Positions 7,001 through 10,000 of a stretch of 47,193 nt of DNA are shown here, piece after piece (position 1 is the first letter of the stretch; each line of letters opens with the position of its first letter). Source of the DNA: Anaerolineae bacterium (GTDB lineage Bacteria; Chloroflexota; Anaerolineae; J102); assembly GCA_026991225.1 (NCBI GenBank), contig JALXCB010000128.1, positions 1-47,193 of the forward strand, given 5' to 3'. Both the position numbers and the translations under genes were made by a program. The notes under the pieces are model-generated. The model was not told the origin of the DNA. It saw only the letters and a list, made by a program, of their open reading frames with translations, and made no database searches.

Positions 7001-10000
7001 AAGATCCGCGGTTACCGCATCGAGCCGGGCGAGGTGGAACACCGCCTGGCCCAGCATCCCGCCCTGAAGCAGGTGGTCGTGGTCGCCCGCGAGGACACGC
7101 CCGGCGACCGTCGTCTGGTGGCCTACATCGTGCCCGCCCGCAAACCGGGCCCCTCCGTCAACGAACTCCGGGCCTTCGTCAAACAGACCCTGCCCGACTA
7201 CATGGCCCCGGCCGCGTTCGTCGAGCTGGATGAGCTGCCCCTGACCGTGTCGGGCAAGGTCAACGTGCGGGCCCTGCCCGCGCCCGACCAGGATCGCCCC
7301 GACCTGGGTTCCGAGTACGTCGCCCCCCGCAATCCCCTGGAAGAGGCCCTGGCCGACATGTGGAAGGAGCTGCTGGGCGTGGAGCGGGTCGGCATCCACG
7401 ACAACTTCTTCGACCTGGGCGGCGATAGCCTGAAAGCGGCCATCTTCGTCAACCGCCTGCAGGAATTCCTGGGCGAGATCGTGTACGTGGTCGTGCTCTT
7501 CGACGCGCCCACCATCGCCGAACTCGCGTCCTACCTCATCGAGAACTTCCCGGCCGCGGTGGCCCGCTCCTGCAAGATCGAGCTTTCCGAGCTCACCGCG
7601 GAGATGCGCGCCCGCGTTGAGCTGGATGAGGGGCTGCTGGCGGACATGCGGCGCCAGATCGAGGCCCGCGGGCCCGATCCCGAAAGCGAAAAGCGCTTCC
7701 TGGCCACCATCCGGCGCAAGAATCCCCCGGCCATCTTCATTCTCACCGCGCCCCGTTCTGGCTCCACCCTGCTGCGGGTCATGCTGGCCGGGAATCCCGC
7801 ACTCTTCTCCCCGCCCGAGCTGGCGCTGCTGCCCTTCCGCACGTTGGCGGAGCGGCGGGCTGCGTTCGCGGGCCGGGAGAGCGGCTGGCAGGAGGGCGTG
7901 TGGCGGGCGCTCATGGCCATCCACGATTGCGATTTCGAGACCGCCCGCGACATCATGGCCGACCTGGAAGCCCGCGGCATGACCATCCAGGACTTCTATC
8001 TTTACCTGCAGGAGCGCATCGGCGACCGTCTGCTGGTGGACAAGACCACGACCAACGCGCTCCATCCCCTCTACCTGCCCCGGGCCGAGGCTTACTTCGA
8101 GAACGCGTTCTACATCCATCTCGTACGCCATCCCGCGGCCATGATCCAGTCCTACCTCACCAGCGGCATGGATCAGATCTTCGGGCATGGGTACAGCTAT
8201 CCGCCCCGGGCCAAGGCCGAGCTGTTCTGGAACATCGTCAACCAGAACATTCTCGAATTCCTGGAGAACGTGCCCGAGGAGCGCCGCTTCTTCCTGCAAT
8301 ACGAAGACCTGGTCACGAATCCCGAATATGAGATGCGGCGGCTGTGCGACGCCCTGGGCATCGACTTCCATCCTGACATGCTCGATCCCTACGGCGATCC
8401 CGTGGCCCGCATGACCGACCCGGTGCATCCCGAAAGCCGCATGGTGGGCGATCCCCGCTTCATGCAGCATCGCCGCATCGACCCGAGCCTGGCGACCAAG
8501 GGCATCGTGCTGCCGCCGGGCGACGCGCTCAGCGCCCTCACCCTGGAGCTGGCCCGCAAGCTGGATTACCACCTGGCGTCCACGGGCGAGCTGGCCAAAC
8601 CCCAGGCCCTGACCGCGCCCGCGCCCATCTCCCGCGACCAGCGCATCCCCCTGTCCTTCGCCCAGCAGCGTCTCTGGTTTCTGGATCAACTGGCGCCGGG
8701 CCAGTCCCTCTACCACATCCCCACCGCCATGCGGCTGCAGGGCCAGCTCAACGTCGAGGCCCTGGAGCGGGCGGTCAACGCCATCATCCAGCGCCATGAG
8801 GTCCTGCGCACCGTGTTCCTGGCCGACGAGAATGGCGAGCCCTACCAGCACATCCTGCCCGAACTGCGCATCCCGCTGGAGATCACCGATCTGCGGCATC
8901 TGCCCGAGGATGAACGCATGCCCGAGGCCGAGCGCATCGTGGACGAGGTGGTGAAGCGGCCCTTCGACCTGGCCCGCGGGCCCCTCATCCGCGGCCAGCT
9001 CATCCAGCTGGATGACGAGGATTACGTGGCCGTCATGGTCATGCACCACACCGTGTCCGACGGCTGGTCCACGGGCATCCTGGTGCGAGAGATCGTGGCC
9101 CACTACATGCACTTCGCCTTCGGCTTCCCCCTGCAACTGCCCGACCTGCCCATCCAGTATGCGGATTACGCCTGGTGGCAGCGGCAATGGCTGCAGGGTG
9201 AGGTGCTGGAAGGGCAACTGGACTGGTGGCGCGAGTACCTGGCCGGCGCGCCGCCCCTGCTGGAGCTTCCCACCGACCGCCCGCGTCCCCCCGTGCAGAC
9301 CTTCAACGGCGGCTACGAGCGCATGGCTCTGCCTCCCGACCTGCTGGATGCGCTGAAGAAGCTGAGCCGGGAGGAGGGTGCCACCCTGTTCATGACCCTG
9401 CTCACTGCCTTCGACCTGCTGCTCAGCCGCTACGCCCGCCAGGAAGACATCGTCATCGGCACGCCCATCGCCAACCGCAACCGGGCCGAGCTGGAAAACC
9501 TCATCGGCTACTTCGCCAACACCCTGGTCATCCGCGCCCAGCTTCACGGCAATCCCACCTTCCGGGAAGCGTTGCAGCGGGTGCGGGAAGCGGCGCTGGG
9601 CGCGTACGCGCACCAGGACACGCCCTTCGAGATGGTGGTGAACGCGGTGGACGCCGAGCGCAACATGAGCTTCAGCCCCTTGTTCCAGGTCATGTTCATC
9701 CTGCAGAACCTGCCCCAGGACAGGAGCGCGCTGAAGCTGCCCGGCCTCACCCTGGATACGGTGCACTCCGACACGGGCGTCGCCACCTTCGACATCACCT
9801 TCGCCCTGTCCGAAAGCCCCGGCGGCCTGCGCGGGGCGCTCAACTACAACACCGACCTGTTCGATGCGGCCACGATTCGGCGCATGTTGAACCATTTCGC
9901 CCGCATCCTGGAACAAGTCGTGGCCGACCCCGACCGCCCCATCGGCGATATCAGCCTGTTGACCGAGGAGGAGGCCCGGCTGCTGCTGGTGGACTGGAAC

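What the first reader, a model, noticed from the sequence alone, without database searches (positions are those of the whole stretch)
7725..8560. Sulfotransferase domain embedded between PCP and C in NRPS2
After PCP1 (LGGDS, followed by the unusual LGEIVYVVVLFDAPTIAELA segment) comes a full PAPS-type sulfotransferase domain (TAPRSGSTLL, IHLVRHP), then the next C domain. In-line ST domains are best known from the CurM-type ST-TE chain-ending system; an internal one would modify a carrier-bound intermediate. A second, free-standing sulfotransferase sits downstream at 36144. The in-line domain could sulfate the growing peptide or do something non-canonical.
Basis: partly seen in the sequence, partly recalled or inferred. 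Interest (0 to 1): 0.68.

Follow-up and report, generated by a model that had tools for sequence, protein, structure and literature searches.

The report
Built-in sulfating domain in peptide assembly line
One enzyme of a bacterial peptide assembly line carries an intact sulfate-transferring domain directly behind a carrier domain, where it most likely adds sulfate to the attached building block; the arrangement is known from a few cyanobacterial starter modules but here sits inside the line, and the same gene cluster recurs in three bacterial phyla.

Summary
NRPS2 (window 4046-13402) is C-A-PCP-ST-C-A-PCP-E. The ST (about 7715-8578) has intact PAPS-binding residues and a candidate catalytic Glu. 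Its closest solved structures are the CurM and OLS sulfotransferases (E 3.5e-68 and 6.6e-62; model Z 37-38, rmsd 1.4-1.7 Å). It belongs to a large NRPS-embedded clade, separated with full support from the CurM/OLS (PKS) STs; 62 of 93 STs surveyed sit directly before a C domain, across many phyla. Downstream C domains look like ordinary condensation domains, so the chain continues. The whole cluster, with its free ST, MFS, TEII and PPTase, is conserved in Calditrichota and Ignavibacteriota. Best reading: in-line sulfonation of the residue held on PCP1, with the sulfate kept. Precedent: PCP-ST-C-A-PCP-E in varlaxin/suomilide AerB and dysinosin DysB, which sulfate glyceric acid. New here: use in an elongation module behind an Arg/Lys/Tyr-like A domain. 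The acceptor atom is unknown; N-sulfonation is possible. A new variant of a known kind.

The parts
4046..13402 (+). NRPS2, 3118 aa, C-A-PCP-ST-C-A-PCP-E
4214..5542 (+). C domain 1 (aa 57-499)
   Evidence: Pfam PF00668
5609..7270 (+). A domain 1, 9-residue code DAEDIGTIV (+K); nearest characterised codes are ApnA A1 DVEDIGAIEK (Arg), DVEDIGGVEK (Arg+Lys), DVEDIGIIAK (Arg+Tyr)
   Evidence: PMC5311044 Table 2
7346..7537 (+). PCP1, Ppant Ser1128 (7427-7429), carries the ST-carrier signature GGDSLKAAIFVNRLQ ... LGEIVYVVVLFDAPTI
7538..7714 (+). mostly helical linker between PCP1 and ST
   Evidence: AlphaFold2 model
7715..8578 (+). in-line sulfotransferase domain of CurM/OLS type; Arg1237 (7754), Glu1258 (7817), Lys1333 (8042), Arg1361 (8126), Ser1369 (8150) intact
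8636..9930 (+). post-ST condensation domain, HHTVSDG intact, groups with ordinary C domains of the same assembly line (approximate borders)
10055..11695 (+). A domain 2, code DAQDLGMVD (Gln-like), approximate borders
11990..13399 (+). epimerization domain (second residue delivered as D)
2..3559 (+). NRPS1 (cut by the contig edge), PCP tail-C-A(Phe code)-PCP
14790..21587 (+). NRPS3, C-A(DAEHLGLIT)-PCP-C-A(Phe code)-PCP
21693..35972 (+). NRPS4, Orn-, Asn-, Tyr-, Tyr-coded modules and TE
36144..37223 (+). free-standing sulfotransferase, PF13469, not CurM type; conserved in the orthologous clusters
37227..38567 (+). MFS transporter
38570..39328 (+). type II thioesterase
39768..40496 (+). 4'-phosphopantetheinyl transferase

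Best explanation
The domain is an active, PAPS-dependent sulfotransferase of the CurM/OLS superfamily, recruited as an in-line tailoring domain. A1 loads a residue (pocket like the Arg/Lys/Tyr-activating ApnA A1) on a dedicated carrier, PCP1. PCP1 docks on the adjacent ST through its specialised helix II/III face. The ST, probably with Glu1258 as base, moves a sulfonate from PAPS to a nucleophile of the PCP1-bound aminoacyl or peptidyl unit. The ordinary downstream C domain then condenses the sulfated chain with the Gln-like residue, which the E domain inverts. The sulfate stays in the final lipopeptide. Shown by sequence or model: architecture, fold, intact active site, carrier signature, ordinary downstream C domain, conserved cluster, an APS kinase in the genome. 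Inferred: activity, acceptor atom (side-chain N of Arg/Lys or phenol O of Tyr), retention of the sulfate.
For: Fold and family: phmmer to CurM ST 4gbm E 3.5e-68 and OLS ST 4gox 6.6e-62; model pLDDT 92.7, Z 37.6 / rmsd 1.4 Å over 273 to 4gox and Z 36.9 / 1.7 Å over 279 to 4gbm. Active site: Arg, Lys, Arg, Ser in 74/74 and Glu in 73/74 PCP-ST didomains; Arg in the 5'-PSB, a His/Glu base and Ser in the 3'-PB are the residues named essential in PMC6637879. Carrier signature 68/79 vs 0/53; in the window it is seen in PCP1 of NRPS2 and not in the seven PCPs of NRPS1, 3 and 4 printed there. All motifs listed for post-ST C domains are HHxxxDG, and the window's groups with ordinary C domains of the same line. 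Ser/Thr codes are enriched upstream of STs, 17/63 vs 1/59, p 5e-5, pointing to real acceptors in other clades; in L081 two Asp-like ST modules have a TauD oxygenase gene overlapping the NRPS stop. The same PCP-ST-C-A-PCP-E order is described in AerB/DysB proteins, whose products carry sulfated glyceric acid, with sulfate loss in MS/MS for dysinosins; L084 shows that architecture and its ST falls in the same NRPS clade. APS kinase in the genome. Cluster conserved in three phyla with ST in the same place.
Against: No product or assay. The A1 pocket is not Ser/Thr-like, and no TauD, P450 or PhyH hydroxylase was found in the window genome or the three orthologous ones, so the beta-hydroxyl acceptor expected from CurM is probably absent. 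Related STs also follow Val/Ile-like, Gly-, Asn- and Cys-coded A domains, where the acceptor is not evident from the code.
Confidence: 0.75

Rival explanations
1. Transient activation: the ST sulfonates a beta-hydroxyl only to make it a leaving group, and the following domain eliminates sulfate to give a dehydro residue (the CurM logic transplanted to ST-C).
For: Homology to the activating CurM/OLS STs; many Thr- and Ser-coded ST modules elsewhere; some NRPS loci have PCP-ST-TE, where decarboxylative elimination is plausible.
Against: The window's A1 is not Ser/Thr-coded and no hydroxylase of the families searched with a working control was found. The post-ST C domain is not a distinct subtype and groups with ordinary C domains. 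Products of AerB/DysB with the same order retain sulfate.
Confidence: 0.1
2. The ST acts on another unit (an upstream residue of the peptidyl chain); the A1 code does not name the acceptor.
For: Closely related STs follow A domains with different codes: L009b DVWYLGGIC, L079 DALWLGGTF, L029 Asn code; aliphatic-coded ST modules exist in genomes without the hydroxylases searched.
Against: ST clades follow A-code classes more than shuffled labels do (29 changes vs a mean of 46, minimum 40 of 300, relatedness not corrected); dedicated carrier signature; in L054 the Thr- and Tyr-module STs of one protein group with other Thr and Tyr STs respectively.
Confidence: 0.12
3. Inactive relic kept as a spacer.
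For: No activity data.
Against: Catalytic residues invariant across phyla at 40-88% identity; 88% identical ortholog in a same-genus genome.
Confidence: 0.03

Closest known systems
AerB of varlaxin and suomilide (PMC10143770) and DysB of dysinosin (PMC6520454): MT-FkbH-PCP-ST-C-A-PCP-E
   Same: PCP-ST-C-A-PCP-E order including the E domain after the next module; ST of the same NRPS-embedded clade (judged from L084, an AerB/DysB-like protein, not from AerB itself)
   Different: There the ST sits in a glycerate-loading module and sulfates a hydroxyl of glyceric acid; here it is in an elongation module (C-A in front) with an Arg/Lys/Tyr-like A code
CurM ST (4gbm) and olefin synthase ST (4gox)
   Same: Sequence 42-45% identical, same fold, PAPS-binding residues, candidate Glu base
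   Different: Those are PKS ACP-ST-TE chain-ending units that activate a beta-hydroxyl for decarboxylation; here a C domain follows and the chain goes on
Cyanopeptolin oci S domain (Planktothrix, PMC2533009)
   Same: Sulfotransferase domain reported in an NRPS operon with a glyceric-acid loading domain
   Different: Its sequence was not compared here; initiation module
Sulfazecin SulN (PMC11298585)
   Same: Sulfotransferase gene of an NRPS cluster; from own knowledge it acts on a side-chain amine of a carrier-bound residue
   Different: Free-standing gene, not in-line

Membership tests
CurM/OLS 'activating' ST, ACP-ST-TE chain-ending system | Sequence and fold relationship to CurM/OLS ST | tested here: met
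CurM/OLS 'activating' ST, ACP-ST-TE chain-ending system | 5'-PSB Arg, 3'-PB Arg/Ser, Glu base | tested here: met
   Glu assigned by alignment, not by a solved complex
CurM/OLS 'activating' ST, ACP-ST-TE chain-ending system | Followed directly by TE at the end of a PKS | tested here: not met
   A condensation domain follows
CurM/OLS 'activating' ST, ACP-ST-TE chain-ending system | Beta-hydroxyacyl substrate, decarboxylative elimination | not testable with these tools
   no product
AerB/DysB-type in-line tailoring ST | PCP-ST-C-A-PCP-E order | tested here: met
AerB/DysB-type in-line tailoring ST | FkbH glycerate-loading domain in front of the PCP | tested here: not met
   C-A in front; FkbH found in the relatives L058 and L084
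AerB/DysB-type in-line tailoring ST | Sulfate retained in the product | not testable with these tools
   no product
NRPS-embedded ST clade defined here | Groups with NRPS STs apart from CurM/OLS | tested here: met
   86-row group, SH-aLRT 100, quick tree, root not inferred
NRPS-embedded ST clade defined here | Upstream PCP with GGxS-x7-N-xx-Q | tested here: met
   GGDSLKAAIFVNRLQ

The most novel reading that the evidence does not exclude
The in-line ST N-sulfonates the side chain of a carrier-bound Arg or Lys residue during elongation, giving an internal sulfamate or sulfoguanidine, in a conserved lipopeptide family made by at least three bacterial phyla, with up to three such ST modules per assembly line.
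Probability: 0.3. Interest if true: 0.75.

Novelty: new variant of a known kind. Interest (0 to 1): 0.5.

Why it matters
In-line sulfation is known mainly from cyanobacterial starter modules and PKS chain ends. The survey shows a widespread PCP-ST cassette with its own carrier signature, which would let sulfated residues be predicted from sequence and offers a portable sulfation unit for assembly-line engineering. The conserved cluster also makes the product a concrete target for isolation.

Tried and rejected
Simple Ser/Thr O-sulfation: the A1 code is not Ser/Thr. Beta-hydroxylation followed by O-sulfation: no TauD, P450 or PhyH in G000, G061, G062, G063; the CmlA_N search rang nowhere, controls included, so it is inconclusive, and AspH-type and other hydroxylases were not searched. 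Special eliminating C domain: not seen. Literature search for the code DAEDIG: no hit; the nearest characterised codes came from ApnA A1. The CurM/OLS structure paper is not held, so its Glu base rests on my recollection plus alignment with TPST. Whole genome not available as a file. One region fetch failed on length; adjacency was read from L081 instead. The A1 PDB searches did not fix the substrate. First alignment of relatives mixed strands and was redone.

Full report
What is there. NRPS2 of the window (4046-13402, 3118 aa) reads C-A-PCP-ST-C-A-PCP-E. The ST is Pfam Sulfotransfer_3 at aa 1228-1442; the whole folded domain is about aa 1224-1511, window 7715-8578. phmmer against PDB sequences gives the CurM ST (4gbm, E 3.5e-68) and the olefin synthase ST (4gox, 6.6e-62) far ahead of the next hits, human tyrosylprotein sulfotransferases at about 1e-6. 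An AlphaFold2 model of PCP-ST (74-row alignment, pLDDT 92.7) matches 4gox at Z 37.6, rmsd 1.4 Å over 273 residues and 4gbm at Z 36.9, 1.7 Å over 279, with TPSTs at Z about 20.

Active site. Across 74 PCP-ST didomains the 5'-PSB Arg1237, Lys1333, 3'-PB Arg1361 and Ser1369 are invariant and Glu1258 is present in 73. Arg in the 5'-PSB, a His or Glu base and Ser in the 3'-PB are the residues described as essential in sulfotransferases (PMC6637879). Glu1258 is called the base because it aligns at the TPST2 Glu pair and because the CurM/OLS work proposed a Glu base (own knowledge; that paper is not held). An APS kinase is in the genome next to other sulfotransferases.

How common it is. A scan of one genome per species found 467 encoding stretches; the best 80 gave 79 loci. 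With own-genome and family copies, 93 ST domains (including the two PDB references) were placed: 62 are directly followed by a C domain, 10 by a TE, 13 end the protein, two stand first in tandem PCP-ST-PCP-ST. PCP-ST-C occurs in Acidobacteriota, Calditrichota, Chloroflexota, Pseudomonadota, Ignavibacteriota, Cyanobacteriota, Bacteroidota, Planctomycetota and Myxococcota. In a tree the NRPS-embedded STs (86 rows, including a few with no NRPS context in view) are separated by a branch with SH-aLRT 100 from CurM, OLS and five other rows; the window's ST is in a 14-row group (97) whose determined A codes are all DAED-type. The tree was a quick one and its root is not inferred. The sample was taken by similarity to the window, so proportions are not those of nature.

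The carrier signature. Carriers directly in front of an ST carry GGxS-x7-N-xx-Q in helix II (68 of 79; the Asn in 72), against 0 of 53 other PCPs (Asn in 1), Fisher p 2.5e-26, relatedness not corrected. They also replace the usual LPLR-LFE stretch with VxVV-LFDAPT. In the window it is seen in PCP1 of NRPS2; the seven PCPs of NRPS1, 3 and 4 printed lack it. I read this as a docking face for the ST; that reading is inference.

What is modified. The A domain in front has the code DAEDIGTIV. The nearest experimentally linked codes are those of ApnA A1: DVEDIGAIEK (Arg), DVEDIGGVEK (Arg and Lys), DVEDIGIIAK (Arg and Tyr) (PMC5311044 Table 2). So Arg, Lys or Tyr are the best guesses; a side-chain nitrogen or a phenol would be the acceptor. 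In other clades the A code before the ST is Thr (12), Ser (5) or Tyr (4); Ser/Thr are enriched over other A domains of the same loci (17/63 vs 1/59, p 5e-5). In Thalassomonas (L081) two Asp-like ST modules are followed by a TauD-family oxygenase gene overlapping the NRPS stop codon, which fits beta-hydroxylation followed by O-sulfation. The window genome and its three cluster relatives have no TauD, P450 or PhyH match, so that route is unlikely here. Aliphatic-coded ST modules in genomes without these hydroxylases (G066, G067) remain unexplained.

What comes after. The post-ST C domains keep HHxxxDG, and the window's groups with C domains of NRPS1, 3 and 4 rather than in a class of its own. 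This argues for ordinary condensation of a sulfated chain and against elimination as in CurM.

The cluster. NRPS2, NRPS3, NRPS4, the free ST, MFS, TEII and PPTase are conserved in G063 and G062 (Melioribacteraceae, Ignavibacteriota) and G061 (Calditrichia) at about 35-49% identity, with matching A codes at most positions; G061 has an extra ORF between NRPSs and a different order of the small genes. In G062 the line starts with a FAAL and PKS modules, so the product should be a lipopeptide ending Phe - [ST residue] - D-Gln - x - Phe - Orn - Asn - Tyr - Tyr. G062 and G061 have further ST modules upstream. Two other contigs of the window's genome, C58 and C193, carry three more PCP-ST-C units and may be the missing upstream part; that is not proven.

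Comparison with what is known. The same order, PCP-ST-C-A-PCP-E, is described for AerB of varlaxin (and an MT/FkbH/ST first module for suomilide; PMC10143770) and DysB of dysinosin (PMC6520454), where the ST sulfates a glycerate loaded by an FkbH domain; dysinosin MS/MS shows sulfate loss. L084 has an FkbM-FkbH-PCP-ST-C-A-PCP-E architecture and its ST lies within the NRPS clade. The window thus has the known tailoring unit moved into an elongation module with a different acceptor. I file it as a new variant of a known kind. The free ST at 36144 is of another subfamily and may sulfate a second site.

Limits. No chemistry was measured; the window genome is a 97% complete MAG; A-domain codes were read by alignment to GrsA recalled from memory (positions checked for internal consistency).

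Noticed in passing
window 2717-2836, 6824-6943, 11240-11359, 17394-17513, 20748-20867; 1850-1999, 5924-6079, 10346-10501, 19881-20030, 30330-30479, 33624-33773: Dispersed repeats sit in frame in two loops of many A domains: (CACGAAGG)n read as HEGTKARRHEE, and YSVFSVQYS...LNTEH. The octamer array occurs 215 times in the genome (3 mismatches allowed) against 0 for the reversed control, so intergenic-type repeats seem to have entered NRPS coding sequence without breaking it.
   Followed up: partly
window 13430-14600: Between NRPS2 and NRPS3 lies a Y1/IS200-like transposase ORF (14036-14536) flanked by about 180-bp tandem copies of a palindromic GC-rich repeat, like a REP/RAYT system.
   Followed up: no
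window 21693-35972 (P0005 A domains near aa 2948 and 4046): The last two Tyr-coded modules of NRPS4 are almost identical, loops included, which suggests a recent module duplication or conversion.
   Followed up: no
L044 (PCP-ST-PCP-ST after one A domain) and L095: Tandem PCP-ST pairs in one module; the two STs of L044 fall in different ST clades (DAED type and aliphatic type), suggesting two different sulfonations.
   Followed up: partly
L047, L048, L078, L090, L096, L103: NRPS modules ending PCP-ST-TE with Tyr-, Thr-, Gly- or other-coded A domains: possible peptide chain ends by decarboxylative elimination, giving enamides.
   Followed up: no
L094 7001-7870: The only surveyed ST without the conserved Glu (Ser instead) follows a Cys-coded A domain.
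   Followed up: no
G000:C198 7567-22244: Two further sulfotransferases and the APS kinase lie on one contig, perhaps a polysaccharide sulfation locus.
   Followed up: no
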